DNA from: Fibrella aestuarina BUZ 2 | GTDB taxonomy: Bacteria > Bacteroidota > Bacteroidia > Cytophagales > Spirosomataceae | Length of the DNA stretch: 64,000 nt | Assembly: GCF_000331105.1 (NCBI RefSeq) | Contig: NC_020054.1 | Span: 858,001-922,000 of the forward strand | Direction: 5' to 3' | Shown: positions 18,440-41,439 of the stretch, piece by piece | Layout: every line of letters starts with the position of its first letter | Numbering within the stretch: the first letter of the stretch is position 1 | Position numbers and translations under genes: made by a program | The notes under the pieces: model-generated | Told to the model about the DNA's origin: nothing | Seen by the model: the letters and a program-made list of their open reading frames with translations, nothing else | Database searches by the model: none

Positions 18440-21400
18440 CTATCTGCCCCGTTTGTCGAGCACGGCCTGTAGTTTGGCGGCGAACTCTTTATCGTTTGGC
18501 GGCGCAAAAATGTAGCTGTGTTCGCCGGGTACGTCGTAGACGTGGACGCCTTTGCGGGCAAAATCGCGCCAGCCGTAGTAGTCATAGTCGTCCATGAAGA
18601 ACGTCTGGATGGTGGCCCGGAACAGGTGTACCTCCAGGTCGGCGGGTAGGAGCTGGAAGTTTTCAAGGGCCACGTCGTTGATGGCTTCGATGCGGAAGGT
18701 GGTGTCAAAAATAGCCTCCTGCTGTTGCGCCTGCCCGAATTTGAGCTGCCAATAGGCCCGAATGGCCATTCGTTGCAAGATGTGCCCGGCCCGGCGGCTG
18801 GGTTTGAGCCACCAGTATTGCTTAATCAGCTTACGGTCAATCGACTGCATTTTGTAGGAAATGCCCTGGAAGCCGTGCTGCCTGACGAGCCGGAGCGTGT
18901 GGCCGACCTTGCCCATAAACTCGCTGATGCCGTTGGCTTTGCGCTGCCACCACGGGTTGCTGCGGCCGGCGTCGTAGGCATAGGCATCGAACAGGGCCAC
19001 CAGACTCACTTCGCGGCCCTGCACCAGCAGCTGCCGGGCCATTTCGTAGGCGACGATTCCACCGAAGGAAAAGCCGCTGAGTGAGTAAGGCCCCGTGGGG
19101 TTATGCTGCACGATCTCCGATACGTAAGCCTCGGCCATCTCGGTGATGCTGCGGAATGGCTCATCGACGCCATTCAGGCCCCGCGCCTGTAGGCCATAGA
19201 CGGGCTGGTCGGGGTGAAGGTTGTTGGCGACGGCGTTGAACAGCAGCACGTTGAGGCCCGCGCCGTGTACAATGTAGAGTGGTTCGCGATTACCCGCTGG
19301 CCGGATTGGCACCAGCGATTTCCACGACCTGACCTCGGGGGCGTCTTCGTGGATGAGCGTGGCCAAGGCCCGGATGGTCGGGTACTCGAAGAGCGACGCC
19401 AAAGGCAGGCGCTTGCCGGTTTGTCTTTCGAGCCGGGTCATCACCTGCACGGCAATCATGGAGTGCCCACCCAACTCGAAAAAGTTGTCGTCGACGCCGA
19501 TGGTCTCAATGCCCAATACGCTGCTCCACACGCCTGCCAGCAGTTTTTCTTCGGGCGTGGTCGGTTGGTTGTTGGTCGATTCCGGCGCGGCCTCGGGACG
19601 AACGTCGGCCGGCGCGGGCAGGGCTTTGCGGTCGATTTTGCCGTTTGGCGTAATCGGAAAGCGGGGCAGCACCACAAAGTCGGTCGGGACCATGTAGTCG
19701 GGCAGCGCCTGGGCGGCTTCCTGCCGCCAGGTACGTAGTTGCTCCTTCGAGATGGTCGGCAGTGGCGCGTGCGGCTCGTTAACAAAGTCGCGGGGGGCCG
19801 CGTTGGTCAGGTGCAGACCCGCTGGTGGCGTTGGCAGGGCATCGGCGCGATGTTGCGGGATAAAGACCACCTCCAGCCGGTTGTCGGCCCCGTCGGAAGC
19901 CCAGCGCACGTGCGCCCGGAAGCCCAACCGCTCGGCCAGTGGCCAGAACAGATCGGGGTCGACGCCCGCAGGTACGTTGCCCAGCCTGTTTTTCAGCTCG
20001 CCCAGCGGTTGGTCATCGGCCGCGTTATCCAGCCAGCCAACAAGCGCATGGTCGGTAGCGGTACGGGCATTGGGTACGTTGGTCAGCCGTAGGGTTCGAT
20101 CTGGCAGCTGGTGCAGCTGTTGTTCCAGCGCCTCGACGGTACCAATAGACGCCCAGTCTAGCGTTTGGTCGGCCAGGAGCTGAGGCGGCACCTCATCGGC
20201 GCTTTTGCCAACGTAAAGCCAGACGTCGAAGTGGTATTTAGTGGTCTCGTTCAGAGCATGGCCTTCGCGCAGCTGCACGTCCACCGCCCCAATCGTCGGG
20301 AACAGCGTTGGCAGCAGGTAGAAGAAAGCGGGGTCGGCCATTAGTTCATCGTCGAGTTTCACCCGCCGCTCCACAATGCGGCGGAAATCGGCCACGCGCT
20401 GGCTGTCGGCAGTGCGCTGCAACTGATCGAACGTGTGGTGCTGCACCTGCAAACGGCGGCTCTGCATGTCGCCCACAAAGACGCAGCCACCCGCCTGCGT
20501 GGCGTTGACCGCCCCTTCGATTACCTTCAGCAGATACCGGACGTCGGGGAAATATTGCGCCACGCTGTGGATGAGCACCAGATCGAGCGATGCCGGTGCG
20601 ACCATCGAATAGTCGTCGGCCATGGCCACCTGCGCGCGCACCTGCCCCTTGCCAATCGGGTTGGCCTGAACGCGCTGATTCAGGTTGTCGATGGCGGTTT
20701 GGGCATAGTCAGTGGCAATATAAAGGTCGGTATCGGTGGCGAGTTCAAACAACAGTTGCCCGGCGCCCGATCCCACTTCCAGCACCCGTTTGGCATGCAG
20801 CGTCCGTAGCCGTTTCAGCGACTGGGCCAGCCACTCGTCGGCCTGCTGCCGGATATCGGTCTGGTTGGAGAGCTGTTCGGCAATGACCACGTCGAGATCG
20901 AGCTCGGCGGTGGTGTGGTCGGTCTGGCTTTTAACGCCCGCTTCGTAGATGGTATCCCAACGTTGCTGCCAGTCCATACCCGCGCTGTCGAACTGGCTCA
21001 GGTCGGGGACCACGTAGGCCACCAGCCGCTGATCGCCGGGGCGGTCTTCGCGGGCCATCACCACCGCTTCTTTGATGGTATTGCTTTTGGCCAGCGTGTG
21101 CTCAACCTCGCCCAGTTCGATCCGGAAACCGCGAATCTTTACCTGCTGATCGATACGGCCCATGTACACGATATCGCCCGTGGTGGGTGCATCGGCGGTG
21201 TTGCCGCCGTCGAGGTAACGGCCGAGGTCGCCCGTGCGGTAGATTTTCTCGGGCGTGGCCGAGAACGGATTGTCAATAAATTTTTCGGCGGTCAGTTCAG
21301 GCTGATTCAGGTAGCCATTGGATACCCCCTCACCCGCAATCCAGAGCTCGCCGGGCTGGCCGTCGGTGATCGGTTGCCCGTTTTCATCAACGACGTAAAT

Positions 21401-23821
21401 GCGGGTGTTGGCAATGGCCGAACCGATGGTGATCCGCTCATCGGTTTTGCGGATGCGCTTGCCCGTGGCGTAGATGGTCGTTTCGGTGGGGCCGTAATAA
21501 TTCCAGAGCTCGGCGCACAGATCGAGCAGCGTGTGTGCCAGATCCATCGGCAGCGCTTCGGCGCAGGAGATCACGCGCAGGGCCTTGTGGCCGCGCCAGC
21601 CTGCTTCGAGCAACACCCGGAAAGTCGCCGGGGTGGTCTGAATAAACGTGATCGACGGATCGCCGAGCACCTGCGCCAGCGCCTCGCCATTCCGGGCCGT
21701 GGCCGGGTCGATGAGTAGTAGTTCGGCCCCGACGAGCAGCGGCGTATAGATTTCAACCACCGCTAGGTCGAAGGCAATGGTTGCCAGCGCGATGGTCTTG
21801 TCCGTATGCGTCAGACCCGGCTCGTTGGCCACGCTAAACAGCACATTGGCCACGCTATGATGCCGGATCAGCGCGCCCTTGGGCCGGCCAGTCGTGCCCG
21901 ACGTGTACAGGATATAGGCAATGTCGGCGCCGGTCGGCTGCTGATCGGGGGCGGTTTGTGGGTACTGACTCAGCGTTGGCCAGAGGGTTTCGACCAGCAA
22001 CTCGCGTGCATCAGGCAGATCGAACCGGCCGGTATGCGCTGCCGACGTTAGCAGGGCTACGCAACCCGCGTCGGTCAGGATATAGTTGATGCGGTCGGTT
22101 GGATGCTGCGGATCGACGGGGATGTATGTCGCGCCGGCTTTCATAATGCCCAGCATGCCCACGATCAGCGGTAGCGATCGGTCGATGGCCAGCCCAACAC
22201 GGTCGCCCGGCCGAATACCCTGCGCGCGCAGCGCATGCCCTACTTGATTGGCCTGCTTATCCAGGTCGGCGTAGGTCAGCGATTCCTGTTTGAAGCGAAT
22301 GGCTACTTTGTCCGGGAAATGCATGGCCGTATCGGCCAGCAGCGTGGTAAGGCCTTTTTCACGGGTGTAGCCACTGCCTTTAGCCGAAATAGCCGTTGGC
22401 GCAGCCGGGCTGACTTTGGCGTGGCCGTTCAGCGGCTTTGGCGCGCTGGGGGATATACCAACCGTCGCCAATGGCTGATCGGGGTTGGCGACGACGGCTT
22501 TCAGCAGCTCAACAAACGACGAATGGAACCCGGCGATGGTTTGAGCCGAAAAGAGCTGGGCATTGTGCGACCATTCCAGAATCAGGGTCTGTTCGGAGCC
22601 CGTTGCGTTGAGCGATAGCTCGAAGTTTTCGAACGCCCGCGGGTTACTCAGCAGTTGTAGCGCCAGGCCCTCGAATGCCACACCTTCGTCGAGGCCCATG
22701 TCGACGTTGAAGACGACTGGCACAAAGGCGACGCGCGACGGATCGCGGGGGATGGGTAGCTTTTTCAGCAGCCGCCCGAAGGTGATGCGCTGATGCTCAA
22801 ACACGTCGAGCAGTTCGGTGCGGCGGCGGCGCAGGTACGTCAGGTACGTTTCGTCGCCCCGGTGCGTGCTGCGTAGAGGAAGGAGGCTGACGCAGTGGCC
22901 AACCAGCCAGTAGCGGTCGGCGACGGGTTGCCCGGCGGCGGGGAGGCCCAGCACCACGTCGGGCTGTTTGGTGAGGCGGCTGAGCCAGAGTTCAAACGTA
23001 GCCGTGAGCGTGCTCACAAAACTGCTGCCCGCTTTCACGCCTACCTGCTTCAGTTGCTGTACCAGCGCGGTGTCCAAGGCCACGTCGTAGCGGTGACTGG
23101 CGTAGGTACGTTGCCGGGGCCTGGGTACGTCGGTCGGCAGGTCAATTGGTGGGACTCCCGTCTTGTACTGATCCAGCCAGAACGCTTCGCTTTCGCGGTA
23201 AGTGTCGCTGTTCAGAAACGCCTGCTGCTCCAGCGCAAACTGGCTGATCTGTGGCGCGGGGGGCAAGCTCAACGACAGGCCCCGCACGTAGGCTGAGTAG
23301 TACTGACCCAGATCCTGCAGGAGAATCCCCGTTGACCAGCCATCGCAAACGATGTGGTGAGCGGTGAGCGTAAAATGATGGGCCGTCTCCGACAAAATCA
23401 GGAGCGTGGCTTTGGCCAGCGGTCCGTGTTGCAGGTCGAAGAGGTAGTTGGCGTCGGCTTCGGTCAGGTCAGCAACGGCCGTGGCTGCTTTGTCGGGCTG
23501 ATCGCTGTAATCGATAACCTGAAGCGGAATAGCCAGGTCGGCCAGAATGCACAGGTGTTGCCCGTCGGGACTAAAGGTGGAACGAAGCGCTTCATGGCGA
23601 CGCACCAGCATCGCCCAGGCTCGCTCAAAAGCATCAACGTCAAGCTTACCCGTAAACCGTAGCGATACCGATTCATTGTAGGCCCGACTGGCAGCATCCC
23701 CACCAAACTGACAGGCCAGCCAGATTTCGGCCTGCGATTCGGTCATAGGGACCACCCCAATCAGCTCGGGTCCGGCGAACGGATCAAAATCAACAGCGGG
23801 TAGGGGTGGTGCGATAGACAT
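18440..23821 (-). CDS. Nonribosomal peptide synthetase, C-A-MT-PCP-TE
   Basis: A 1793-residue single-module synthetase with release domain. Condensation domain about 25-440: active motif HHIVCDG at 155-161. Adenylation domain from about 480: LYTSGTTG near 638, GPTETTIY and the ELGEVE region. A SAM methyltransferase (VLEVGSGAG at 1013) is inserted between the A8 and A9-A10 parts of the adenylation domain, the position of N-methyltransferases. Carrier domain: FFELGGHS with Ser1454. Thioesterase: GFSFGG with Ser1585 and His1768. The N-terminal PMTESQAEIWLACQ resembles condensation domains that follow aminotransferase domains in PKS-NRPS hybrids. By eye the adenylation pocket reads D-L-V-Q-I-C-Y-I-Y, which I cannot assign. 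It lies 55 bp behind the Wzc-like gene on the same strand, so it is probably the last gene of that operon. Confidence 0.93.
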   Translation of the reverse strand: MSIAPPLPAVDFDPFAGPELIGVVPMTESQAEIWLACQFGGDAASRAYNESVSLRFTGKLDVDAFERAWAMLVRRHEALRSTFSPDGQHLCILADLAIPLQVIDYSDQPDKAATAVADLTEADANYLFDLQHGPLAKATLLILSETAHHFTLTAHHIVCDGWSTGILLQDLGQYYSAYVRGLSLSLPPAPQISQFALEQQAFLNSDTYRESEAFWLDQYKTGVPPIDLPTDVPRPRQRTYASHRYDVALDTALVQQLKQVGVKAGSSFVSTLTATFELWLSRLTKQPDVVLGLPAAGQPVADRYWLVGHCVSLLPLRSTHRGDETYLTYLRRRRTELLDVFEHQRITFGRLLKKLPIPRDPSRVAFVPVVFNVDMGLDEGVAFEGLALQLLSNPRAFENFELSLNATGSEQTLILEWSHNAQLFSAQTIAGFHSSFVELLKAVVANPDQPLATVGISPSAPKPLNGHAKVSPAAPTAISAKGSGYTREKGLTTLLADTAMHFPDKVAIRFKQESLTYADLDKQANQVGHALRAQGIRPGDRVGLAIDRSLPLIVGMLGIMKAGATYIPVDPQHPTDRINYILTDAGCVALLTSAAHTGRFDLPDARELLVETLWPTLSQYPQTAPDQQPTGADIAYILYTSGTTGRPKGALIRHHSVANVLFSVANEPGLTHTDKTIALATIAFDLAVVEIYTPLLVGAELLLIDPATARNGEALAQVLGDPSITFIQTTPATFRVLLEAGWRGHKALRVISCAEALPMDLAHTLLDLCAELWNYYGPTETTIYATGKRIRKTDERITIGSAIANTRIYVVDENGQPITDGQPGELWIAGEGVSNGYLNQPELTAEKFIDNPFSATPEKIYRTGDLGRYLDGGNTADAPTTGDIVYMGRIDQQVKIRGFRIELGEVEHTLAKSNTIKEAVVMAREDRPGDQRLVAYVVPDLSQFDSAGMDWQQRWDTIYEAGVKSQTDHTTAELDLDVVIAEQLSNQTDIRQQADEWLAQSLKRLRTLHAKRVLEVGSGAGQLLFELATDTDLYIATDYAQTAIDNLNQRVQANPIGKGQVRAQVAMADDYSMVAPASLDLVLIHSVAQYFPDVRYLLKVIEGAVNATQAGGCVFVGDMQSRRLQVQHHTFDQLQRTADSQRVADFRRIVERRVKLDDELMADPAFFYLLPTLFPTIGAVDVQLREGHALNETTKYHFDVWLYVGKSADEVPPQLLADQTLDWASIGTVEALEQQLHQLPDRTLRLTNVPNARTATDHALVGWLDNAADDQPLGELKNRLGNVPAGVDPDLFWPLAERLGFRAHVRWASDGADNRLEVVFIPQHRADALPTPPAGLHLTNAAPRDFVNEPHAPLPTISKEQLRTWRQEAAQALPDYMVPTDFVVLPRFPITPNGKIDRKALPAPADVRPEAAPESTNNQPTTPEEKLLAGVWSSVLGIETIGVDDNFFELGGHSMIAVQVMTRLERQTGKRLPLASLFEYPTIRALATLIHEDAPEVRSWKSLVPIRPAGNREPLYIVHGAGLNVLLFNAVANNLHPDQPVYGLQARGLNGVDEPFRSITEMAEAYVSEIVQHNPTGPYSLSGFSFGGIVAYEMARQLLVQGREVSLVALFDAYAYDAGRSNPWWQRKANGISEFMGKVGHTLRLVRQHGFQGISYKMQSIDRKLIKQYWWLKPSRRAGHILQRMAIRAYWQLKFGQAQQQEAIFDTTFRIEAINDVALENFQLLPADLEVHLFRATIQTFFMDDYDYYGWRDFARKGVHVYDVPGEHSYIFAPPNDKEFAAKLQAVLDKRGR

Positions 23822-23848
23822 GTACTACGGTCAGCTGGTGTGGTTAGC

Positions 23849-23869
23849 AAAAATAGCTTTTAATGCTAT
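23849..23869 (-). terminator. Weak terminator/attenuator-like hairpin before NRPS
   Basis: On the minus strand ATAGC and GCTAT (23865-23869 and 23853-23857) enclose a 7-nt loop and are followed by five T. It lies in the 55-bp gap between the Wzc-like gene and the NRPS start. The stem is short and AU-rich, so partial termination or chance are both possible. Confidence 0.35.
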
Positions 23870-23876
23870 GTTACTT

Positions 23877-26060: not shown

Positions 26061-26080
26061 AGTCTTATAGCTGGTTCAAT

Positions 26081-26150
26081 GTCCAACGTTCAACGCGGTG
26101 CTGCCACGTAGCAGAGCAGCGGGCTGGCAAGACGCCGTTGAACGTTCGAC
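26081..26150. repeat. Inverted repeat between Wzc-like and TolC-like genes
   Basis: Fifteen-nt arms (26081-26095 and 26136-26150) match at 14 positions around a 40-nt loop that contains its own shorter palindrome (CTGC...GCAG). It fills most of the 99-bp gap. It may tune expression within the operon or be a dispersed palindromic element. Confidence 0.5.
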
Positions 26151-26159
26151 CCATGTATG

Positions 26160-27017: not shown

Positions 27018-27228
27018 GGGCGATTGAAATGGAGAACCCGACGAATGTCGACGGGGTTTTTGACGTAGGCTGTCTATCTCTTCTGACGAAAAGTGTGCCA
27101 ACCTGTCACAGCCTAGCTGCTCTACATAAGCTGGATGTGCCACCTATTTTTTTTAGGTAACGGCAAGTTACGCCGCAACGGGCGGCTCCGCGTAGGAATT
27201 GAATGGGCGGTAGGTAAGCCTGAAGTTA

Positions 27229-28443
27229 TCAGGCTGCGCGAGTGGCTTTCTCCCAGATGCCGGAAAGCCCCCCACGGCGGTAACGAACGAACCCCTGCAG
27301 CACGCACCAGTTCATGAACGTGAAATAGAAGGGGACGAAAGCGGGCTTCCAGCGGGTTTGTTGATCCTCAAGCCGGTAGCCGATCCAGGCCAGGCTGTAA
27401 AAGGCAAGTTGGCCCAGGAACATAATGGCCCAGAAGCCAATAGCCAGGCCTGACGCATTCTGGTATACCAATTGTAGCAGGATCAGCGCGTTCAGCAACA
27501 AGAGTAACGGCAGGCAAAACGGGGTTACGGCCCAGCGTAGTACCCGGTGCGATACGTATTGAAAGCTCAGCCAGCCATACCGGCTGATATTAAACAGGGG
27601 CAACAATCGGGCAATCGACTGAAAGCCGCCCGTAGCAATGCGCACTTTGCGTTTCTGCTCTTCGCGAATAGCCGCCGAGGGGCGTTCGAGGGCGTAGGCG
27701 TTAGGCTCGTACTCGACCCGATACCCGCGTGCGGCAATCCGGAGCGAAATCATGAAATCGTCGAGCAGCGTATCGGCCTCGACGGGCTCAAACAGGCCGG
27801 TGCGGATGGCAAACAGTTCGCCGGCGGCGCCCACAATCGTGTGCAACTCGGCATCGAGGCGTTTCAGAAACGATTCGTATTTCCAGTAAAGGCCTTCTCC
27901 GCTGCCAGTAGCGGCTTCGGACGCTTCCATCTGAATGCGTTTCTCGCCTGTTACGGCCCCTACGTTGGGCAGGTCGAACTTCCGAACCAGCCGCGATACG
28001 GCTTCGGGGTTAAGGTGCGTGTTGGCGTCGGTAAAGATTACGAGCGGTGTGTTCACCCGCTTCATGGCTTTATTCATCGCCACAATTTTGCCCAGCCGGT
28101 CGGTCCCCGATAAAATGGTGAGGTTGGGTACGTTGGCCCGTTGGGCCTCGAGCCACTCGGCCGAGCCGTCGGTCGACCCTTCGACCACGAACAGCAGATG
28201 TAGCCGATGGGCGGGGTAATCCTGATCAAGACAGTTCTGCAACTTGGCGGGCAAACAGTCGATCTCGTTGTAGGCGGGCACAACCAGCGTTACGTCGGCG
28301 GGTTCACCCATGGGCGGCAATACCCGCTGACCAATACCCAGCGCTCGCCGCACCCGTACAATGCCCCACAACAGCAGGCCATAGCCTAGGTACGTATAGA
28401 CGACCAGCGCAAATAGTAACCAGAAAAGAACGATGAGAAGCAT
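27229..28443 (-). CDS. Family 2 glycosyltransferase, membrane-bound
   Basis: A 404-residue processive-type GT2 enzyme. An N-terminal helix (4-30) is followed by a GT-A domain: VVPAYNE at about 50, the sugar-nucleotide motif FTDANTH, the acceptor-site ED-like segment LLDDFMISLR, and a QKRK segment where QxxRW usually stands. Three or four C-terminal transmembrane helices follow. The ATG at 28443 is preferred; a TTG three codons upstream is also in frame. It should transfer a sugar from a nucleotide donor to a lipid-linked or growing polysaccharide at the inner membrane. Lies between the sugar transferase and the TolC-like gene in the minus-strand run. Confidence 0.87.
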   Translation of the reverse strand: MLLIVLFWLLFALVVYTYLGYGLLLWGIVRVRRALGIGQRVLPPMGEPADVTLVVPAYNEIDCLPAKLQNCLDQDYPAHRLHLLFVVEGSTDGSAEWLEAQRANVPNLTILSGTDRLGKIVAMNKAMKRVNTPLVIFTDANTHLNPEAVSRLVRKFDLPNVGAVTGEKRIQMEASEAATGSGEGLYWKYESFLKRLDAELHTIVGAAGELFAIRTGLFEPVEADTLLDDFMISLRIAARGYRVEYEPNAYALERPSAAIREEQKRKVRIATGGFQSIARLLPLFNISRYGWLSFQYVSHRVLRWAVTPFCLPLLLLLNALILLQLVYQNASGLAIGFWAIMFLGQLAFYSLAWIGYRLEDQQTRWKPAFVPFYFTFMNWCVLQGFVRYRRGGLSGIWEKATRAA

Positions 28444-28548
28444 GGGAGGCAAAACGGTGAGTAATAAACGACAGGCGGTGAGGGTACGGCTGGGCCGCGC
28501 ATTTGTCGTGCGTTACGTGCTCACCGCTTAGTCCGCACCGTTGCTTAA

Positions 28549-29766
28549 TCAGACGTTTTCTTGCTGCCAGAGGCTGAAAAACGTCTTGTAAATGATCTTC
28601 ATGTCATTCCAGAACGAGAACGTTTCGACGTACTCGATGTCGAGGGCGATGCGCTCCTGCTCATCCATCTTGGCTTCGCCTTTGGCGCGTTTCTGCACCT
28701 GCCACAGGCCTGTGAGACCACTCGGACCCGCAAAGCGCTTCACCGTCTGATCGGCCGTTAGTTTTTCCGCTTCGTAGACCGGCAGGGGGCGGTTACCAAC
28801 CAGCGACATGTCGCCGCGCAGGATGTTGATCAGCTGCGGCAGTTCGTCGATGCTGCTGTTGCGCAGGAAATGGCCAAGGCGTGTAATGCGCGGATCATTC
28901 CGGAATTTGACAAAGGTGGCGCCTTTCTCGCCTTGTTTGAGGTATTGGCGCTCACAGACGAAGCGGTCGTTGTGGAAGAGCTTGCGCTGGCAAGAGGAGG
29001 CAATCAACGCGCATTCTTCGCAAATATCTTTGACCTGCGGGGTTTCGTCGGTTGCACCGTTGATGTTGTACAGATTCTCTGAGGCCATGTCTTTCAACAT
29101 CGTGGCCGCATCGGTCCGCATCGTGCGGAATTTGATCATGTCGAAAACGCGGTAGTTGGAGCCCACCCGTTTCGACTTAAAGAAGACCGGCCCTTTCGAG
29201 TCGAGTTTGATGAGGATGGCTACCAGCAGCATCAGCGGGCTGAACACAATCAGGGCCTGCAGAGAGGCCGCAATGTCGATGGCGCGCTTCCAAGTCGGTA
29301 ACTGAAACGTAAAAGCCTGCCCTTCCACCTCCGCGTCGGGCTGAGTGGCTACCCGGCGCATCAGCGTCAGAAAAAACTTGATCCGGCGCTCCAGGTGCGT
29401 TGGATCGGTCAGGGTGAGCAGGTCGGTAACGCCCGTGTGCATCGCCAGCTGGGTTACCCGGTCGGTAACGGTCTGGCAGAGCAGCAGAATCGGCACACTG
29501 CGTTGGATAGTGAGGTCGCGCAGGGCCGCGAGTGAATCGGCTCTGGCTTCGGTTTCGTTGATGATGATGAGTGAGGTGGAACGGCGGTCACGTACCCAGG
29601 CGATGGCATCGTCCATCCGTTGGTACCAGCGGATCAGGCAGGAAGAATCCAGCCAGTTGCTGATTTGGCTAAATACGGCCTCATTTTTATCAACCAGCAC
29701 TAGACATGGCGCTTGTTGCCCATTCATAGTCGGTGATGTGTTGTGGTGTGTAGGATAAGCAGACAT
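28549..29766 (-). CDS. Initiating sugar-phosphate transferase with receiver-like N-terminus
   Basis: A 405-residue protein. Residues about 155-405 are a bacterial sugar transferase (WbaP/ExoY type): [49 protein letters not shown], which moves a sugar phosphate to undecaprenyl phosphate and starts polysaccharide repeat assembly. Residues about 18-140 resemble a response-regulator receiver, but the position of the phospho-acceptor is Asn70 and a second acidic residue is lacking, so it is probably not phosphorylated. An insertion at 247-271 carries four cysteines in the pattern C-x2-C-x6-C-x11-C (249, 252, 259, 271), a possible metal site. Only one transmembrane hairpin (about 165-187) is evident. 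It stands next to a stand-alone receiver protein. Confidence 0.85.
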
Positions 29767-29821
29767 GGTTACCGGCGGCTGTTACCAGGGGCAATGAGGC
29801 AATTGACCTGGTACGGTTCGA

Positions 29822-30292
29822 TTATAGATTCAGGGAACCGGGTGACCAGAACCGCTTCAGCAGCGCTGAATGAACGGGCACAGCCTGAGCTTCAGCCTTT
29901 TCCAGGCCAAACACCGAGCGGCCAGTCATCGACTGAAGCTTCACTTTCACTTCGAGCGGGTTGAACGGCTTGGCAATGTGCCCATCGGCACCGGCTTCGA
30001 GGCAGGCAATCCGAGTGTCGCTGTCAAACGCTTCTGATAAAACAAGAATGGGGGTGCGGCCCATGAGCTTGCTCATACGGACCAGCTTGATCAATTCTAA
30101 GCCGTCGAAAAAGGGCAGGTCGAGTTCGGTGATCACGCAATCGAACTTACGGCCCTGTATCAACATACGAACCGCGTCGCGGCTATTGGTGGCTACGGTT
30201 ATTTGGTAATCTGCTCTTAAGGTTTGGGTTAAAACCGTTACGATGTGTGGGTTTTCCTCAACGATAAGCAAGTGTTTCAATGACGTTTTCAT
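29822..30292 (-). CDS. Single-domain response regulator with Glu at the phospho-site
   Basis: A 156-residue receiver-domain protein with a short C-terminal tail and no output domain. The ATG at 30292 gives KTSLKHLLIVEEN; the longer frame from 30448 is non-homologous. Acidic pair Glu12/Glu13, Ser86 and Lys108 (IAKPF) are in place, but by alignment on LPFFDG the acceptor position is Glu56 (ITELDLP), not Asp. It might therefore sit permanently in an active-like state, or be a pseudo-receiver. It is the first gene of the minus-strand exopolysaccharide-NRPS run, so it may signal to the sugar transferase next to it. Asp58 near the site leaves some doubt about the alignment. Confidence 0.8.
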   Translation of the reverse strand: MKTSLKHLLIVEENPHIVTVLTQTLRADYQITVATNSRDAVRMLIQGRKFDCVITELDLPFFDGLELIKLVRMSKLMGRTPILVLSEAFDSDTRIACLEAGADGHIAKPFNPLEVKVKLQSMTGRSVFGLEKAEAQAVPVHSALLKRFWSPGSLNL

Positions 30293-30333
30293 TATGGCTA
30301 GGTTTTCCCTGCAACTTCTTTTTTGGAGAAATT

Positions 30334-30349
30334 TGGCACGACTATTGCT
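30334..30349 (+). promoter_or_regulatory. Sigma-54 (RpoN) promoter, -24/-12
   Basis: TGGCACG-ACTA-TTGCT at 30334-30349 matches the sigma-54 consensus TGGCACG-N4-TTGCW at every fixed position, with GG at 30335-30336 and GC at 30347-30348 spaced 12 bp. It points to the right and the start would be near 30360. The AT-rich flank is in keeping with a promoter. An upstream activator site was not identified. Confidence 0.6.
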
Positions 30350-30359
30350 AAATTTTCGT

Positions 30360-30463
30360 CGTGCACAACAGGCATTATGGGTGTTAAAAACTGGCGTGTC
30401 ACTTCCAAGCTGAATTGACTGTGTCGGGGACTGAATGATCAGTGCCACCGACTTCTTTTTTTT
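30360..30463 (+). ncRNA. Candidate sigma-54-dependent small RNA
   Basis: From the predicted sigma-54 start (about 30360) to the end of the T-tract of an intrinsic terminator (30463) is about 104 nt. No open reading frame of note lies within it. The layout of a sigma-54 promoter followed directly by a terminator, with no gene between, is that of small regulatory RNAs (for example the sigma-54-dependent Qrr RNAs of Vibrio). It sits between the divergent response regulator and synthetase genes. The assignment rests on the promoter and terminator alone; expression is not shown. Confidence 0.45.
30423..30463 (+). terminator. Intrinsic terminator in the divergent gap
   Basis: GTCGG-GG-ACTGA, loop ATGA (30435-30438), TCAGT-GCCA-CCGAC (to 30452), followed by TTCTTTTTTTT. 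Ten base pairs plus an internal loop and a long T-tract; strong signal on the plus strand. It would end any transcript from the sigma-54 promoter about 65 nt after it starts to be read. Confidence 0.7.
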
Positions 30464-31173
30464 GTACCTACCGGCCAGTTCGTTAAATACATGCTTTTAG
30501 ACTAGGTATTAGTTTCATACGTCACAGTGCTTAACTGCGATTTAACTGACGGTTTATTAGGCGGTCGATAACGATACTATCGGTTTCAGTCAATCGAAAA
30601 TTCAGTTTGTGCCTTACGCCGAGAGATACGCGCGCCTTCCTAAAAATGGAATTTCATTCCACGCGCTTTCCCAACAATCACTACGTAATCACTCGTTGGT
30701 TAGCTATTCATTATCAGTTATTTACTAGTTAAAATAGGCTGTATTTACCCAGTTCGAGCGGCTGAAAACCATTGTAAGTTGGAGACGACGCGAATACGAA
30801 CGAGGGTTTTGCAATAAATTTTAGAGGCTACCAGATTGAAATTGACTGAGAGGTTGCTCGTCACTTTTAAATTCCTCTATAAACACTAGTCTTTCTATAG
30901 AATGTTTAATTAGTGTATGTGCATATATATATGATTAATTTTTTGGTTTACTACAGCCAAATAATAGAGTTTTCTAAAATCGTATAACAAATTGGTTGCA
31001 TTTACTTAAGTAAAATCTCCATAGATTTTACCGATCTTATATAACTATCGCCTATTTGTTACTACAATAAGTTAACCCAATGTGGCCCAATGAGACTGAG
31101 TTCGTCTAAAGGATATAGCTATACGGGCACGGTGTTGGTACTGGCCCTGATGCCTACCTGAGCTGACTCTATT
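30464..31173. other. AT-rich gene-free region upstream of the PKS-NRPS
   Basis: About 710 bp with no plausible gene in any frame and clearly lower G+C than the rest of the window. It contains several palindromes: TGGAAT-TTC-ATTCCA (30647-30661), a perfect 14-bp palindrome TTTACTTAAGTAAA (31001-31014) and, overlapping it, a 9-bp-arm inverted repeat (31010-31031). A TA-repeat (30923-30931) also occurs. This is the likely control region of the 6.8-kb synthetase gene. I found no full TAnnTTTG promoter near the ATG. Confidence 0.5.
31001..31031. repeat. Two overlapping palindromes upstream of PKS-NRPS
   Basis: A perfect 14-bp palindrome (31001-31014) shares its right half with a second inverted repeat whose 9-nt arms (31010-31018 and 31023-31031, GTAAAATCT and complement) flank CCAT. 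The two structures exclude each other. They may be operator sites for a dimeric regulator. Confidence 0.5.
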
Positions 31174-34100
31174 ATGCAGACGAACCGGCCAACTGACACA
31201 TCCCCTTTTTCTGCAACCACCCGTTGGTTTGCGGAAGCGCAGCAGGTTCATCAACTCGTTGAGGCAATGGCTAGCCGCTATCCCGAGCAGCCCGCTGTCG
31301 TGATCGAAGGCGCTTCGCAGACTTATGCGGAGTTGAACGAAGTAGCCAATCGGATTGCCAGTCAACTGCTTCGTCAGGCCCCGGAAGCGCCTGTCATCGG
31401 TATCGATACCACCCGCCGACTGTCGCTGGTTAGTCAGCTGTTGGGCATACTGAAAGCGGGCAAGGCCTACCTGCCGCTCGACCCTACGTACCCAGCCAGC
31501 CGCCTTCGGCAACTGATCGACAATGCCCACCTGACGCATTGCCTGACGGATGGGGCTCAGAACCTATATGGCGAACTGGGCCTCTCTGTGGTGCGTACTG
31601 ATGAGGAGACAGCGACCGACGCCCCCAACCCGCTAACCCGAACGCCCTACGTCTGTGTATTGTATACGTCGGGGTCGACTGGTGTTCCCAAAGGGGTGTG
31701 TCTGGGTCATGCCGGGCTGATCGACCTGCTCCGCTGGGAGGCAACGCAGGGCCCAGCCCGGCCTGGTAGCCGTACGCTTCAGTTCTGCCACCTCAGCTTC
31801 GACGCGTCGTTTCAGGAAATCTTCCTGCCGCTTAGCACCGGTGGTACGGTTTATTTGATTGATGACAGCTACCGCCTCGACGCGGGCCGGTTGCTGCGGT
31901 TTATGGTCGATAATGCGATCAATCGGGTGTTTCTGCCCTATGTGGTGCTGCAATACCTCTGTGAAGCGGCCGAGGCGCAATCGCTGTTTCCGGCCTCGCT
32001 CGAGGAAATCATTACGGGTGGTGAACGCCTGCGCATTACGCCGCAGATCCGCCGGTTTTTTACCGAGCTGCCCACCGCCACGCTCATGAACGTGTATGGC
32101 CCCACCGAAACGAGCGTGTGGGTGACCCAATACAAACTGACCGGCGATGCGCCCAACTGGCCCAAGTTGCCGCCCATTGGCGCGCCCATTGCCAACGCTG
32201 AGGTGCTGATTCTGTCGGACACGCTGACGCTGCTGCCCGATGGCGAGGTAGGGGAGGTGTGCATTGGTGGCCCGCCCGTAGCGCTGGGTTACCTGAATCA
32301 ACCCGAGCGTACCGCCGAACGATTCATCCAATGGCAACACCCGGAGAAAGGCACCCTGACGCTTTACCGCACCGGCGATCTGGCCCGCTACGTACCTGAC
32401 GACAAGGGCACGCGGCTGCTCGACTTTCAGGGTCGGGCTGATGATCAGGTGAAAATTCGTGGCAATCGGGTCGAACTGGGCGAGATCGAGGTGGCACTGG
32501 CGCACCTGCCCGACGTGCAGCAGGCGGTGGCGGTGGCCCTCGAAAACGAAGCGGGTCTGAAGCGCATCGTGGCCTACGTGCTGATGACGCCCGGGCAGCA
32601 AGCTAACGTGGCCGACATGCGGGCCAACCTGGCGGCAACTATGCCCGATTTCATGCTGCCGGCGCATATTATCGAACTAACCGACCTGCCCCGCACCACC
32701 AGCGGTAAGGTCGACAAGCTGCGTCTGCCCAAACCCGAGTCGACCCGGCCGGCGCTGGGTACGTTGTTTCGGGAACCCGTTTCGGAACAGGAAAAGACCA
32801 TCGCGGCGATCTGGGCCGAACTGCTGCAAATCAGCCCTATTGGTCTCGATGACAACTTTTTTGAGTTGGGCGGTAACTCGTTGCTGGCGCAGAAGACCGT
32901 GGCCCAACTGGCTCAACGGGGTCAGACACTACCCATTACGAAACTATACCAATACCCAACCGTTGCCGGGCTGGCAACGTACCTGAGCGGGCAGGGGGCG
33001 ACTCCGCAGAAACAGAGTCGGCAACCAACGGCGGCCCGGCGCGCAGAGAGTGGCGATGTTGCGATCATCGGGATGGCGGGCCGGTTTCCGGGTGCCGACT
33101 CGGTGGCTGACCTTTGGGACGTGCTGGCCGAAGGCCGCGAGACCGTCACGTTTTTTACACCCGAGCAGATCGACTCGAGCATTCCGGTCGCCGTACGCAC
33201 GAATCCTGGGTACGTTCGGGCGCGGGGCATCATAGCCAGCGCCGATCAGTTCGACCCGGCTTTCTTCGGGATTACGCCCGCGCTGGCCGAAATGATGGAC
33301 CCGCAGCAGCGCATTTTCCTCGAAATCGCCTACGAAGTGCTGGAACAAACCGGCTACCTGCCGCAGGTCCGAGACGAGATCGTGGGCGTGTATGCGGGCA
33401 GCGGCAACAACACTTATTTCCTGAACAACGTCTTACCAAATCCGGCGCAGATGGCGCGGGTTGGGGCCTTTCAGGCGATGACGGTCAATGAGAAAGACTA
33501 CATCGCCACCCGAACCAGCTACCAACTGAACCTGACGGGCCCTGCCGTGAGTGTCTACTCGGCCTGTTCGACCTCGCTGCTGGCTATTGCTCAGGCGGTC
33601 GAGAGTCTGCGGAATGGGCAATGCACGGTAGCACTGGCGGGGGGCGCCTGTATTACGGCCCCCATCCACAGCGGTCACCTCTACGAAGACGGGGCCATGA
33701 TGAGCCGCGACGGCCATTGCCGCTCGTTCGATGCCGACGCGCAGGGAACCGTTTTCAGTGATGGTGCAGGCGTGGTACTGCTGAAACCCCTGGCCGACGC
33801 CCAGCGCGACGGTGACCCGATTCTGGCGATCATCAAAGGCGTTGGTGTGAACAACGACGGCGGTGGTAAAGGCAGCTTCACGGCCCCCAGTGCCGAAGGA
33901 CAGGCCGCCGCTATCCGCAACGCCCACCTCGACGGCCAGATCGACCCCGCTACCATCAGTTACGTGGAAGCCCACGGCACAGGCACACCGCTGGGCGATC
34001 CGATCGAGATCGACGGGCTACGCATGGCCTTTGGCGAACAACCCCAACGGCAATTCTGCGCAATCGGCTCGCTGAAAAGCAATATGGGCCACCTGTCGCA

Positions 34101-37100
34101 GGCGGCGGGCGTGGCGGGCGTCATCAAAACGGTGCTGGCGATGCAGCACCGCCAGTTGCCGCCGTCCCTTAATTTCAACGTACCCAACCCTGCCATCGAC
34201 TTTGGCAGCAGCCCGTTCTACGTCAACGATCGTCTCACCGACTGGAACGTCGAGGGACCCCTACGTGCTGGTGTCAGTTCATTCGGCGTTGGCGGCACCA
34301 ACGTCCATGTCGTACTGGAAGAGGCAGGGAGCACGGGGCGGGGGGCAACGGGAACTGAGGTTGTTCAGACGCAAAGCCCAGCCTTTACGCTGCTCACCTG
34401 GTCGGCAAAGAGCGACGCCAGCACAGCGGCCTACGCAGAGAAACTGGCTGATGCGCTAGCCACCGCCGATGTAGTTGATGTGGCCTATACGATGGCTACC
34501 ACCCGCCCGGCCTACGCGCACCGGCAGTTTGCGGTAGTGTCCAGCCGTGACGCCATAGACCCGGCTTTGCTGACAAAAACACCACGCGTTGTCTTGAAAC
34601 AGCAGCCCGGCGAAGTGGCGTTTGTGTTTCCCGGGCAGGGTGCCCAATACCTCAATATGGGTCGGGCGTTTTACGAACAGAAACCCGTATATCGGCAGGC
34701 CGTCGATGCGTGCGCGGCCCTGCTTGAACCGTACCTCGACGTCGATATCCGGACGGTGCTGTTCTCCGACGATGAAGATCTGGCGGCGAAAGAACTGCTG
34801 AAAAATACGCGTTACACCCAGCCTGCCCTGTTCGTGACCAACTATGCGCTGGCGCAGCTCTGGCAAAGCTGGGGCATTGAGCCGACGGTGTTCTGCGGAC
34901 ACAGCATCGGTGAGTTTGTCGCGGCGCACTTGGCGGGTGTATTCTCGCTAGCCGATGCGCTGCAACTCGTAGCGACACGCGGACAGCTGGTCAGCGCCTG
35001 CCCGCGGGGAAGCATGCTGTCAGTGCGGCTGTCGGCGGCTGACGTGGCCCCCCTCTTGCCCGAAACCCTGTCGCTGGCGGCCATCAACAGCCACAGCTTG
35101 TGTGTGGTGGCGGGGCCCGATGAAGACATCGCCGCGCTGGCGCAGCGGCTCGACAAACAGCAAACGCCAAACCGCGTGTTGCAGACCAGCCACGCCTTCC
35201 ATTCGGCTATGATGGACCCCGTGGTGGATGCGTTCCGGGCCGTTGTGGAAAAGGTACAGGTACAGCGCCCGCAGAAACCCGTTGTTTCGACCGTAACCGG
35301 CACCTGGCTGACCGATGCGCAGGCGACCGACCCGGTTTATTGGGCCAAGCATCTGCGCGAAACCGTCCGGTTTGCCGACGCCCTCGACACCCTGTTCGAA
35401 CTGCGGCAACCCGTCTTGCTCGAAGTGGGGCCGGGCTTCAGCTCAACCACGCTGGCCCGACAGCAGGCCGGTACGCGCACCGTCGTGACGGTAGCCAGTC
35501 TGCACCGACCCACCCCCGACCGAACCGAAGAGCAGGCCATCCTGATGGCCCTCGGTACGCTCTGGCAGCAGGGGCTCACACCCAACTGGGACGCCGTGTT
35601 TGCCGGTTCGGGCGGAAAACGCATTCCATTACCAACCTATCCGTTCAATCGTAAGCGGTGCTGGATCGACTCACCGGCTGGCCACATGGCCCTGATTCCG
35701 ACGCAGATGAACGTGACGTTGCCGACCGATGAGCCCATCGCACCCTCGTCTACCAACGTACCTATAACTAACTCAGATACAACCCACACGTTAGTCATTC
35801 CGGCTCCGACCGACGTACCTACGCCTATGCGAAGCGAACATTTACTCGACAAAATCAAGACGTTACTGGAAGATGCGTCTGGCATTGATCTGGTCGATCT
35901 GAATGCCAATGATACCTTCCTCGAACTGGGTCTCGATTCCCTGCTGCTGACCCAGATTTCGATCAGTCTGCGGAGTTCGTTTGGGGTGCCCATCTCGTTC
36001 CGGCAACTGAGCAGCGAACTGGATACGCCGCAGAAAGTCGCCGATTACCTCGACACCCAACTGCCTGCCGAAACGCATCAGCCCGCGCCCGCCCCGGCAC
36101 CCGTACCGCCCATGGGTAACGTACCTACGAACGTACCTACATACGGGACCACGAGCCTCGACCCGATGCCTGCCCTACCCGGCGGCGACTCAGCGCTGGG
36201 CCTCATTGCTCAGCAATTGCAACTCCTGGCCCGGCAGGTGGCGCTGATGCAGGGCGGCATGGGGCAAGGGGCAGGGAGCATGCGGCAGGGGGCGGCAACG
36301 TACCCAACGGCCGTGTCGCCTGCGCCCACAACCCCCGTTCCACCGCTACCCCCCACGCCCCCAGCCCCCCGCTTTCAGCCCGCCGCCGACATCACGCCGG
36401 AGGAAGCGGTGGAACTGAAAAAACCGTTTGGCGCTACGGCGCGGATCGAGCGGCAGAAAACGGACAACCTGACCCCAAAACAGCAGCAGTTTCTGGCCGA
36501 TCTGACGCAGACCTACAACGCCAAAACCGCTGGGAGTAAAGCCTACACGCAGAAACACCGCGCCCAGATGGCCGATCCGCGGGTGGTATCGGGCTTCCGG
36601 CCGCAGACCAAAGAACTGGTCTACCCGATCGTGATCAAGCGCTCGAAAGGAAGCAAGCTGTGGGACGTCGACGGTAACGAGTACATCGACGCCCTCAACG
36701 GATTCGGCGCGACCATGTTTGGCCATCAGCCCGATTTCATCAAGGAAGCGCTGCACGCGCAGGTCGAAAATGGCTTTGAAGTAGGACCGCAACACGAATT
36801 GGCCGGCGAAGTCTGTGAGTTGTTCTGCGACATGACCAATAACGAGCGGGCTGCCCTATGCAGCACCGGCTCGGAGGCGGTGCTGGGCACCATGCGTATT
36901 GCCCGGACCATCACCGGCCGCTCGCTGATTGTGGCCTTCACGGGCTCGTACCACGGCATTGTGGATGAAGTACTCGTGCGTGGTACCAAAAAGCTGAAGT
37001 CGTTCCCGGCGGCGGCGGGCATCATGCCTGAGTCGGTGCAGAATATGCTCATCCTCGACTACGGCACCGACGAAAGCCTGCGTATCATCCGCGAACGGGC

Positions 37101-37962
37101 GCACGAGCTGGCCGCTGTACTGGTTGAGCCGGTGCAGAGCCGCCGCGCCGAATTCCAGCCGGTGGCTTTCCTCAAGGAAGTGCGGGCTATTACGGAAGCA
37201 TCGGGCACGGCACTCATCTTCGACGAGGTCATCACCGGTTTCCGCATGCATCCGGGCGGGGCGCAGGCCTTGTTCGGAATTCAGGCCGATCTGGCGTCGT
37301 ACGGGAAAGTGGTGGGCGGCGGACTGCCCATCGGCATCATCGCGGGCAAGAAATCGTTTATGGACGCGCTCGATGGTGGTTTCTGGGAGTACGGCGACGA
37401 GTCGATTCCTGAGGTGGGCGTCACGTACTTTGCCGGTACGTTCGTGCGGCATCCGCTGGCACTGGCGTCGGCCAAAGCGTCGTTGCTGCATTTGAAAGAG
37501 AAAGGTCCCGCGCTGCAAAAAACGCTAACCCGCCACGCCGAAACTATTGCCGAAAGCCTCAATGCGGCCTTCACGCGCCTGAAGCTACCCCTGTTTGCCG
37601 CGCAGTTTGGCTCGCTGTGGCGCCTGAAGTGGACGGAAGACGTACCCTACGGCGAGCTGCTCTTCACGCTGATGCGGCAGAAAGGCATCCACATCTGGGA
37701 CGGCTTTCCCTGCTTCGTCACTGAGGCCCATACCGAAGCCGAGCTAGCCGCGATCCGCGACGCCTGTATCGACAGTGCCAACGAACTCATCCGCGCGGGC
37801 TTCTTCCCGATGGCCGTTACCGAAACAACCTCTGGTGCGTGGCTGGCGCACCAACCGCCTGTACCCGGAGCCCGTCTCGGGCGCGATCAGCAGGGTAACC
37901 CCGCCTGGTTCGTCCCCGATCCTGACCAACCCGGCAAATACCGACAGCTGGAAATCGCCTAG
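31174..37962 (+). CDS. Hybrid NRPS-PKS: A-PCP-KS-AT-ACP-aminotransferase
   Basis: A 2262-residue megasynthase. Adenylation domain about 20-510 (LYTSGSTG at 163; pocket by eye D-A-Q-F-I-G-V-V-W). Carrier protein Ser569 (FFELGGNS). Ketosynthase about 625-1055 with Cys798 (SACSTSL), His934 (EAHGTGT), His973 (NMGHLSQ). Acyltransferase with Ser1244 (GHSIGEF) and HAFHS at 1340, typical for malonyl-CoA. Second carrier Ser1589 (ELGLDS). A Pro-rich linker (1625-1750) leads to a PLP aminotransferase of the glutamate-semialdehyde type with Lys2045 (SYGKVVGGG). No ketoreductase is present, so the beta-keto group stays for transamination to a beta-amine. The C-terminal tail (GNPAWFVPDPDQPGKY) resembles the linker that joins such aminotransferases to a condensation domain, but the protein ends there; the partner is probably the NRPS at 18440-23821. 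No phosphopantetheinyl transferase is in the window. Confidence 0.94.
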   Translation: MQTNRPTDTSPFSATTRWFAEAQQVHQLVEAMASRYPEQPAVVIEGASQTYAELNEVANRIASQLLRQAPEAPVIGIDTTRRLSLVSQLLGILKAGKAYLPLDPTYPASRLRQLIDNAHLTHCLTDGAQNLYGELGLSVVRTDEETATDAPNPLTRTPYVCVLYTSGSTGVPKGVCLGHAGLIDLLRWEATQGPARPGSRTLQFCHLSFDASFQEIFLPLSTGGTVYLIDDSYRLDAGRLLRFMVDNAINRVFLPYVVLQYLCEAAEAQSLFPASLEEIITGGERLRITPQIRRFFTELPTATLMNVYGPTETSVWVTQYKLTGDAPNWPKLPPIGAPIANAEVLILSDTLTLLPDGEVGEVCIGGPPVALGYLNQPERTAERFIQWQHPEKGTLTLYRTGDLARYVPDDKGTRLLDFQGRADDQVKIRGNRVELGEIEVALAHLPDVQQAVAVALENEAGLKRIVAYVLMTPGQQANVADMRANLAATMPDFMLPAHIIELTDLPRTTSGKVDKLRLPKPESTRPALGTLFREPVSEQEKTIAAIWAELLQISPIGLDDNFFELGGNSLLAQKTVAQLAQRGQTLPITKLYQYPTVAGLATYLSGQGATPQKQSRQPTAARRAESGDVAIIGMAGRFPGADSVADLWDVLAEGRETVTFFTPEQIDSSIPVAVRTNPGYVRARGIIASADQFDPAFFGITPALAEMMDPQQRIFLEIAYEVLEQTGYLPQVRDEIVGVYAGSGNNTYFLNNVLPNPAQMARVGAFQAMTVNEKDYIATRTSYQLNLTGPAVSVYSACSTSLLAIAQAVESLRNGQCTVALAGGACITAPIHSGHLYEDGAMMSRDGHCRSFDADAQGTVFSDGAGVVLLKPLADAQRDGDPILAIIKGVGVNNDGGGKGSFTAPSAEGQAAAIRNAHLDGQIDPATISYVEAHGTGTPLGDPIEIDGLRMAFGEQPQRQFCAIGSLKSNMGHLSQAAGVAGVIKTVLAMQHRQLPPSLNFNVPNPAIDFGSSPFYVNDRLTDWNVEGPLRAGVSSFGVGGTNVHVVLEEAGSTGRGATGTEVVQTQSPAFTLLTWSAKSDASTAAYAEKLADALATADVVDVAYTMATTRPAYAHRQFAVVSSRDAIDPALLTKTPRVVLKQQPGEVAFVFPGQGAQYLNMGRAFYEQKPVYRQAVDACAALLEPYLDVDIRTVLFSDDEDLAAKELLKNTRYTQPALFVTNYALAQLWQSWGIEPTVFCGHSIGEFVAAHLAGVFSLADALQLVATRGQLVSACPRGSMLSVRLSAADVAPLLPETLSLAAINSHSLCVVAGPDEDIAALAQRLDKQQTPNRVLQTSHAFHSAMMDPVVDAFRAVVEKVQVQRPQKPVVSTVTGTWLTDAQATDPVYWAKHLRETVRFADALDTLFELRQPVLLEVGPGFSSTTLARQQAGTRTVVTVASLHRPTPDRTEEQAILMALGTLWQQGLTPNWDAVFAGSGGKRIPLPTYPFNRKRCWIDSPAGHMALIPTQMNVTLPTDEPIAPSSTNVPITNSDTTHTLVIPAPTDVPTPMRSEHLLDKIKTLLEDASGIDLVDLNANDTFLELGLDSLLLTQISISLRSSFGVPISFRQLSSELDTPQKVADYLDTQLPAETHQPAPAPAPVPPMGNVPTNVPTYGTTSLDPMPALPGGDSALGLIAQQLQLLARQVALMQGGMGQGAGSMRQGAATYPTAVSPAPTTPVPPLPPTPPAPRFQPAADITPEEAVELKKPFGATARIERQKTDNLTPKQQQFLADLTQTYNAKTAGSKAYTQKHRAQMADPRVVSGFRPQTKELVYPIVIKRSKGSKLWDVDGNEYIDALNGFGATMFGHQPDFIKEALHAQVENGFEVGPQHELAGEVCELFCDMTNNERAALCSTGSEAVLGTMRIARTITGRSLIVAFTGSYHGIVDEVLVRGTKKLKSFPAAAGIMPESVQNMLILDYGTDESLRIIRERAHELAAVLVEPVQSRRAEFQPVAFLKEVRAITEASGTALIFDEVITGFRMHPGGAQALFGIQADLASYGKVVGGGLPIGIIAGKKSFMDALDGGFWEYGDESIPEVGVTYFAGTFVRHPLALASAKASLLHLKEKGPALQKTLTRHAETIAESLNAAFTRLKLPLFAAQFGSLWRLKWTEDVPYGELLFTLMRQKGIHIWDGFPCFVTEAHTEAELAAIRDACIDSANELIRAGFFPMAVTETTSGAWLAHQPPVPGARLGRDQQGNPAWFVPDPDQPGKYRQLEIA

Positions 37963-41352: not shown

Positions 41353-41439
41353 AGTGTGTTTCAATGCACGACGTACAATGACTAAGCGCTAAACCGCAGG
41401 CATTAGTGTTAAACGTATGTTATTAGGCCGCTGCCTACT

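What the first reader, a model, noticed from the sequence alone, without database searches (positions are those of the whole stretch)
18440..37962. Split PKS-NRPS assembly line on opposite strands, halves 7.4 kb apart
Seen: one protein ends with an aminotransferase domain (A-PCP-KS-AT-ACP-AMT) plus a tail GNPAWFVPDPDQPGKY, and another begins directly with a condensation domain (C-A-MT-PCP-TE) whose start PMTESQAEIWLACQ resembles condensation domains that follow aminotransferases. From known families (microcystin McyE and iturin/mycosubtilin-type synthases) these two parts are normally one chain with that linker between them. Inference: an ancestral single synthetase was broken at the AMT/C linker and the halves separated by inversion, or the two proteins recognise each other with docking tails.
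Basis: partly seen in the sequence, partly recalled or inferred. Interest (0 to 1): 0.85.

Follow-up and report, generated by a model that had tools for sequence, protein, structure and literature searches.

The report
Two-protein assembly line, separated docking halves
Two giant enzymes that probably build one small molecule together are encoded apart in this bacterium, and each ends in a short matching motif, also found in other bacterial groups, that may let the two proteins find each other.

Summary
A-PCP-KS-AT-ACP-AMT (31174-37962 +) and C-A-MT-PCP-TE (18440-23821 -) lie 7.35 kb apart on opposite strands of a Fibrella-type genome. P0002 holds the only condensation domain found there, so it is the only visible partner.

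The 'broken single chain' reading is not supported. In the family the genes are adjacent in 56 of 66 cases (two of them fused); in this genus in 0 of 5. The Spirosoma fusions are derived. What moved is a gene, in one genus, within an exopolysaccharide locus. Inside the genus the two gene trees agree at the deep forks; outside they conflict, so one half was probably exchanged.

The 'docking tails' reading gains support. The quoted tail is a C-terminal element (about 33 aa), missing from 19 of 22 in-cis AMT-C junctions (the other three are fusions of this family), present when AMT ends the protein (42 of 45), and kept in 8 proteins without AMT. Partner proteins carry an N-terminal F-D/N-P-F motif. 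One fusion has lost half the tail and the head motif. AlphaFold models the tail as three strands and the head as disordered: the reverse of SLiM/beta-hairpin docking. Binding, product and coexpression are untested.

The parts
31174..37962 (+). PKS subunit A-PCP-KS-AT-ACP-AMT-tail, 2262 aa (P0001)
36619..37572 (+). AMT domain (Pfam Aminotran_3, residues 1816-2133); best solved match mycosubtilin AMT 6kfm
37816..37839 (+). low-confidence linker between AMT and tail (residues 2215-2222)
37855..37959 (+). C-terminal tail PPVPGARLGRDQQGNPAWFVPDPDQPGKYRQLEIA, candidate donor docking element; three predicted strands
18440..23821 (-). NRPS subunit head-C-A-MT-PCP-TE, 1793 aa (P0002)
23762..23794 (-). 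N-terminal head VDFDPFAGPEL (residues 10-20), candidate acceptor motif; mostly low-confidence (disordered) in the model
22445..23758 (-). condensation domain, the only one found in the genome
23877..26060 (-). Wzc-like polysaccharide chain-length protein, 55 bp upstream of the NRPS gene; only match of its kind in the genome
26160..27143 (-). OEP outer-membrane efflux-type protein
27229..28452 (-). family 2 glycosyltransferase
28549..29766 (-). Bac_transf polyprenyl sugar-phosphate transferase
29822..30448 (-). response regulator receiver-domain protein, first gene of the minus-strand run
30449..31173 (.). 725-bp divergent intergenic region between the regulator gene (-) and the PKS gene (+); candidate shared control region, no promoter shown

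Best explanation
This is a two-subunit PKS-NRPS assembly line that works in trans. The PKS protein loads an amino acid (A-PCP), adds one malonyl unit (KS-AT-ACP) and turns the beta-keto group into an amine (AMT). Its last ~33 residues, tethered by a flexible linker, form a small beta element that grips the N-terminal F-D/N-P-F motif of the NRPS protein, so that the chain passes to the C domain; the NRPS joins it to a second amino acid (probably N-methylated by the embedded MT) and the TE releases it. Domain order, terminal elements and their distribution are shown; docking, substrates and product are inferred. The two genes were ancestrally adjacent, in Spirosoma-type relatives downstream of OEP-Wzc in an exopolysaccharide locus; in Fibrella the PKS gene ended up outside that operon (by relocation, or by duplication and reciprocal loss), and near the base of the genus one of the two halves was exchanged for a relative. 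Shared docking elements would explain why both changes were tolerated.
For: One C domain, one tail and one Wzc match in the genome. Family of 222 genomes: 56 of the 66 NRPS places I kept (genus included) lie 24-368 bp after a PKS match on the same strand, two of these in one ORF; genus g1 0 of 5. Wzc then NRPS in 5 of 5 genus genomes; OEP-Wzc directly upstream of the PKS in 13 of 21 adjacent-pair loci read. Tail, one locus counted twice removed: AMT last domain 42 with / 3 without; AMT-C in cis 3 with / 19 without; AMT followed by another domain 0 of 5. Sample of 392 genomes of the phylum (window and three family members among the hits): 18 hits, 16 of the 17 I could read are C-terminal, and 14 of those 16 have a head just downstream (11, 3 more); the other two are the window and G113. 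192 of 192 database proteins have it within 25 aa of the C-terminus (all chosen by likeness to P0001 or its tail). Tail kept without AMT in L101, L119, L177, L231-L233, P0283, P0298. Head: first C after a tail ORF 33 yes / 3 no; other C domains 13 yes / 95 no. Fusion G371 keeps 18 of 34 tail positions and no head motif. Gene trees agree at the deep forks within Fibrella. Models: tail pLDDT 82-84 with three strands, head residues 1-14 below 50.
Against: No residual tail-head covariation once KS and C distances are removed (partial r -0.05, p 0.65, 30 pairs), so either the code is universal or the pair does not bind. Two fusions keep the tail whole. L136 and L094 follow a tail ORF but lack the head pattern, and L125 has a split AMT without tail. 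The tail profile was built from 25 of the tails counted. G110 keeps the NRPS in the exopolysaccharide locus but has only a distant lone PKS. Coexpression is unknown; the terminator scan finds no more sites than shuffles (18 against 22) and the promoter scan is weak (10 against 6.9). The exchange of a half rests on clades named after seeing the trees and hidden paralogs are not excluded.
Confidence: 0.7

Rival explanations
1. One reading: one ancestral synthetase was broken at the AMT/C linker and the halves were separated by inversion.
For: Fused versions exist: G196 (3978-aa frame) and G215 (3971) in genus g33, and G371 (3451) elsewhere in the phylum.
Against: The g33 fusions are sister to an adjacent two-gene pair (Larkinella punicea, 100*) and nested among two-gene pairs, with two-gene Pseudomonadota outside (midpoint root). 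19 in-cis AMT-C junctions outside the family have no such linker. Wzc-NRPS order is kept in 5 of 5 genus genomes. G371 was not in the trees.
Confidence: 0.08
2. The tail is a structural cap of the AMT domain or an ACP-contacting element, not a docking element; its link with split proteins is inherited from one ancestor.
For: Nearly all tail proteins belong to one PKS family; 118 of the 120 listed hits of the tail search (of 145) carry AMT. No tail-head covariation.
Against: Tail kept in 8 proteins without AMT, among them Myxococcales, Pseudoxanthomonas, a Larkinella-type genome (G133), three genomes of family f7 and a Sumerlaeota bacterium; variable linker between AMT and tail; the mycosubtilin AMT match ends before it; the partner head appears with it.
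Confidence: 0.22
3. The separated genes no longer work together: the NRPS serves another, lone AMT-PKS or the exopolysaccharide pathway, the PKS is a relic.
For: Lone 'type II' tail-bearing PKS genes without adjacent NRPS occur in relatives; G110 has the NRPS without the usual PKS.
Against: The window genome shows no other tail protein and no other C domain; Fibrella proteins keep their motifs and the trees agree at the deep forks over eight Fibrella pairs.
Confidence: 0.1

Closest known systems
Mycosubtilin/iturin- and microcystin-type AMT-containing PKS-NRPS
   Same: AMT domain family: mycosubtilin AMT 6kfm, E 1e-115 and best fold match; KS-AT-ACP-AMT then C logic (recalled for these systems)
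   Different: AMT and C are on two proteins; extra tail and head; short line ending in TE; 19 sampled in-cis AMT-C junctions lack the tail
Split AMT | C junction described in Pseudanabaena galeata (PMC11356792, passages seen)
   Same: a C-terminal AMT hands the chain to a C domain opening the next ORF: the split junction as such is already in print
   Different: genes adjacent; the passages seen do not discuss a tail or head motif; its sequences were not compared here
SLiM / beta-hairpin docking (tubulysin, epothilone, rhabdopeptide; PMC9113145 section 14 read, PMC13324335 passages)
   Same: short element at the C-terminus of one subunit pairs with an N-terminal element before a C domain
   Different: fold order looks reversed: the C-terminal element is about 33 aa with predicted strands, the N-terminal one a short disordered motif; no alpha-beta-beta-alpha-alpha domain before the C domain
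COM and PAX docking (PMC9113145 section 11 read)
   Same: terminal pairs at subunit borders of NRPS
   Different: COM donors are helices after E domains and PAX pairs are helix bundles; here predicted strands after AMT or ACP

Membership tests
AMT-containing PKS-NRPS | class III aminotransferase domain downstream of KS-AT-ACP | tested here: met
AMT-containing PKS-NRPS | AMT followed by C in the same chain (mycosubtilin/McyE type, recalled) | tested here: not met
   separate ORFs
AMT-containing PKS-NRPS | makes a beta-amino acid unit | not testable with these tools
   no product data
SLiM/beta-hairpin docking | N-terminal alpha-beta-beta-alpha-alpha domain before C | tested here: not met
   only ~21 residues before C, pLDDT below 50 for 1-14; no docking family in the Pfam scan
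SLiM/beta-hairpin docking | C-terminal disordered motif under 15 aa | tested here: not met
   conserved ~33 aa with three predicted strands at pLDDT 82-84
COM domains | C-terminal donor helix after an E domain | tested here: not met
   no E domain; strands, not helix, in the model
COM domains | acceptor hand formed with strands inside the C domain | tested here: inconclusive
   head precedes strand 20-25 of the C model; no complex modelled
PAX three-helix docking | helices at both termini | tested here: not met
docking pair in general | elements at the ends of split subunits, absent when the junction is in cis | tested here: met
   tails 42/3 against 3/19; heads 33/3 against 13/95
docking pair in general | the two ends bind and binding is needed for transfer | not testable with these tools
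   no complex prediction or assay available

The most novel reading that the evidence does not exclude
The tail and head are a new, phylum-crossing class of docking pair in which a C-terminal three-stranded mini-domain of the PKS captures a disordered N-terminal F-D/N-P-F motif of the NRPS: the reverse polarity of SLiM/beta-hairpin docking. Its near-universal code lets one NRPS serve several PKS donors (including lone AMT-PKS genes elsewhere in the genome) and let one half be exchanged and the genes drift apart in Fibrella.
Probability: 0.45. Interest if true: 0.75.

Novelty: new variant of a known kind. Interest (0 to 1): 0.6.

Why it matters
Docking elements decide which megasynthases talk to each other and are the parts used to recombine them. 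A portable, conserved pair seen in Bacteroidota, Pseudomonadota, cyanobacteria, myxobacteria and others, with natural examples of partner exchange, gene separation and decay after fusion, would be a ready tool and makes it testable how trans assembly lines tolerate rearrangement. The link to an exopolysaccharide operon in part of this family also suggests where to look for the unknown product.

Tried and rejected
Exopolysaccharide link across phyla: pooled neighbour scans looked rich in polysaccharide genes (5 Bac_transf, 5 Polysacc_synt among 80 ORFs of 11 loci outside Bacteroidota, out of 153 ORFs of 16 loci listed: 9 GT2, 6 PPTase among 90 ORFs of 9 Bacteroidota loci, out of 169 of 14), but AMT+ and AMT- loci of at least 24 kb did not differ by likeness to the window's genes (17 of 45 against 3 of 15, p 0.34). 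I claim the link only for part of the family.

Tail-head covariation: none (30 of the 31 pairs prepared, Xenophilus dropped because the script's pattern missed its tail). G196 as a second 'separated' pair: rejected, its PKS is adjacent but frameshifted or diverged. Substrate prediction from A-domain pockets: considered, not run. Shared promoter: inconclusive. In one search two strict patterns missed the KS histidine and ACP serine in most Fibrella rows; looser ones show the ACP serine in 11 of 11 and the KS histidine in the 5 of 11 looked at.

Rows dropped: PKS tree took only proteins of 2100-2600 aa with a tail-like end, plus the two fusions; NRPS trees only those with F-D/N-P-F in the first 110 aa and 1100-1850 aa (G205 and G125 fell out; G125 was added). 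One search counted G189 twice (L077, L095); one search recounts without it. Literature: listings only; passages of PMC12181424, PMC13324335 and PMC11356792; sections 11 and 14 of PMC9113145.

Full report
Setting. The window lies at G000:C2:858001-922000 of a 6.94-Mb genome; its closest named relatives are Fibrella. Between them lie Wzc-like, OEP, glycosyltransferase, sugar transferase and response regulator genes, all on the minus strand, with the NRPS last (55 bp after Wzc) and the PKS divergent from the regulator gene across 725 bp.

Partners. PF00668 finds one condensation domain in the genome, in P0002. The tail profile finds one place, the end of P0001. An A-PCP-TE protein 2.2 Mb away, 59-67% identical to parts of P0002, has no C domain, so it is not a rival acceptor.

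How relatives arrange the genes. In 222 genomes of the family, 59 have an NRPS match (E up to 1e-100) and 56 a PKS match (E up to 1e-200). Of 66 NRPS places kept for the count, 56 in 49 genomes lie 24-368 bp after a PKS match on the same strand (distances between matched stretches); two of these are one ORF. The ten others: all five genus genomes, G196 (later found adjacent to a damaged or diverged PKS), G197:C10, G199, and two in fragmentary assemblies (G206, G170). In the genus, G000 and G112 have the divergent layout, G113 has both on one strand 21 kb apart, G110 and G111 have them on different contigs.

What moved. In many g33 (Spirosoma-type) genomes and in G156 the order is GT-OEP-Wzc-PKS-NRPS. 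OEP-Wzc sits directly upstream of the PKS in 11 of 19 upstream flanks of adjacent pairs, and in G156 and G189. In 5 of 5 genus genomes Wzc is followed directly by the NRPS and the PKS is elsewhere. That looks like removal of the PKS from the middle of an operon, or duplication with reciprocal loss; I cannot tell which. The genome has one match to this Wzc.

Histories. In the PKS tree (64 rows) eleven Fibrella proteins form one clade (98*) among adjacent pairs, and the two g33 fusions are sister to Larkinella punicea, an adjacent pair. In trees of 30 paired genomes the Fibrella order is the same for both proteins at the deep forks: G111, G113 and a metagenome pair against G000 plus G112, F. arboris, F. 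aquatica and another; the last four are resolved differently. Outside, PKS puts Fibrella with G193/G199 (98*), NRPS puts it with G156, G189, G201, G192 and G211 (100/99*); each dataset rejects the other's grouping (NRPS held with G193/G199: p 1.8e-30; PKS held with the five: 7e-113; PKS held with G156, G189, G201 only: 1.3e-5). The groups were named after seeing the trees. One half was therefore probably exchanged near the base of the genus; I cannot say which.

The tail. The last ~33 residues are conserved from Bacteroidota to Lysobacter, Variovorax, Nostoc and Corallococcus, after a linker of variable length. Recounted without a duplicate, over 1321 ORFs of the window and 96 loci the profile hits 51 ORFs, 48 at the C-terminus and three inside AMT-C fusions; 25 of these tails built the profile. 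AMT as last domain: 42 with, 3 without (two stand-alone cyanobacterial AMTs and L125). AMT-C in cis: 3 with (fusions G196, G215, G371), 19 without. AMT followed by another domain: 0 of 5. In 392 genomes of the phylum drawn by the tool 17 have it, the window among them; of 18 hits 17 were readable by my pattern, 16 end the protein 28-36 residues on, and one is the G371 fusion. Of the 16, 14 have a head just downstream (11, three more); the other two are the window and G113. All 192 database proteins examined that carry it, chosen by likeness to P0001 or its tail, have it within 25 residues of the end. Eight proteins without AMT keep it: L101, L119, L177, L231, L232, L233, P0283, P0298. No PDB chain carries it (one spurious hit at E 0.53).

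The head. C domains that open a protein just after a tail ORF have F-D/N-P-F in 33 of 36 (one of the three misses, L142, reads HDPF); other C domains in 13 of 108. Of those 13 (listed) I read ten as partners in a less close or unusual arrangement: the window, the lone NRPS of G197, two cyanobacteria, Maribacter, the two g33 fusions, and three ORFs whose frame runs far upstream (L107, L150, L154); L085 is unclear and two in L121 look like chance. In the NRPS homolog list 95 of 100 proteins with an N-terminal C have it; the five without are long NRPSs of 2886-3121 aa. In the G371 fusion the junction reads LGRDEEGNPIWQNTEKLQQLSYEGPSIETVFPVTESQKEIW: half the tail is gone and so is the head motif. 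In the g33 fusions both are kept.

Models. AlphaFold2 gives AMT plus tail a mean pLDDT of 78, the tail blocks 82-84 with strands at 445-448, 454-459 and 467-469 of the fragment, and a low linker at 426-433. The head plus C model has mean 82 with residues 1-14 below 50. The alignments were shallow (26 and 13 rows) and no complex could be modelled. The AMT model's best fold matches are the mycosubtilin AMT entries.

Against docking specificity. Distances of tails and heads over 30 pairs do not correlate once KS and C distances are removed (partial r -0.05). A universal code would look like this, and would fit the exchange and the lone PKS genes; so would absence of binding.

Lone AMT-PKS genes. 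Four sampled lone relatives (G110, G156, G189, G197) form one clade (100*), keep the tail, have no NRPS beside them in the stretches read, and follow a small ORF with a shared start motif. Among the genomes with a lone PKS, G190 alone has no NRPS match at the cut-off, and its PKS match has an in-frame TAG. I infer that lone PKSs feed the NRPS of the other locus; this is not shown.

Mechanism. From domain order: amino acid, malonyl, beta-amination, condensation with a second amino acid, probable N-methylation (MT embedded in A), release by TE. Two PPTase matches lie elsewhere in the genome. Substrates and product are unknown.

Known systems. A C-terminal AMT handing over to a C domain on the next ORF is already described for a cyanobacterium (PMC11356792, passages). 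The NRPS and hybrid docking classes in the 2021 review (sections 11 and 14 read) are COM, PAX and SLiM/beta-hairpin; none has a strand-forming C-terminal element and a disordered N-terminal motif before C. The PKS-only classes of that review were seen in the section list only. The listings of my searches of the open library showed no paper on the motif or on this cluster type; most subscription papers are not in it.

Noticed in passing
L070:9554-12304 (G000:C2 ~3.05 Mb): Stand-alone A-PCP-TE protein, a relative of P0002 without C domain and MT.
   Followed up: partly
window 18440-23821 and NRPS relatives: The embedded MT is absent in some Fibrella NRPSs (F. arboris, F. aquatica, G110) and present in close kin; at least 5, 7 and 8 changes on the C, A and PCP-TE trees.
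   Followed up: partly
L069, L072, L076, L078: Lone tail-bearing AMT-PKS genes without an NRPS next to them, each preceded by a small ORF beginning with a conserved (I/L)-(D/E)-C-G-x-C-x-(I/V)-R-S-W motif.
   Followed up: partly
L231, L232, L233: Three genomes of family f7 have A-PCP-KS-AT-ACP-tail without AMT, followed by a C-A-PCP-TE with head.
   Followed up: partly
L235:4810-15162: Single-chain version (3451 aa) with half-lost tail and lost head motif at the junction.
   Followed up: yes
window 40159-45235: A second exopolysaccharide gene group (GT, Wzy, GT, GT) close by; seen whole in G110 and G113, in part in G111, not in the stretches read of G112.
   Followed up: partly
L199: The PKS next to an NRPS in G196 shows a frame change within the KS region; described only.
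   Followed up: no
window 48121-49569: PARP catalytic-domain protein.
   Followed up: no
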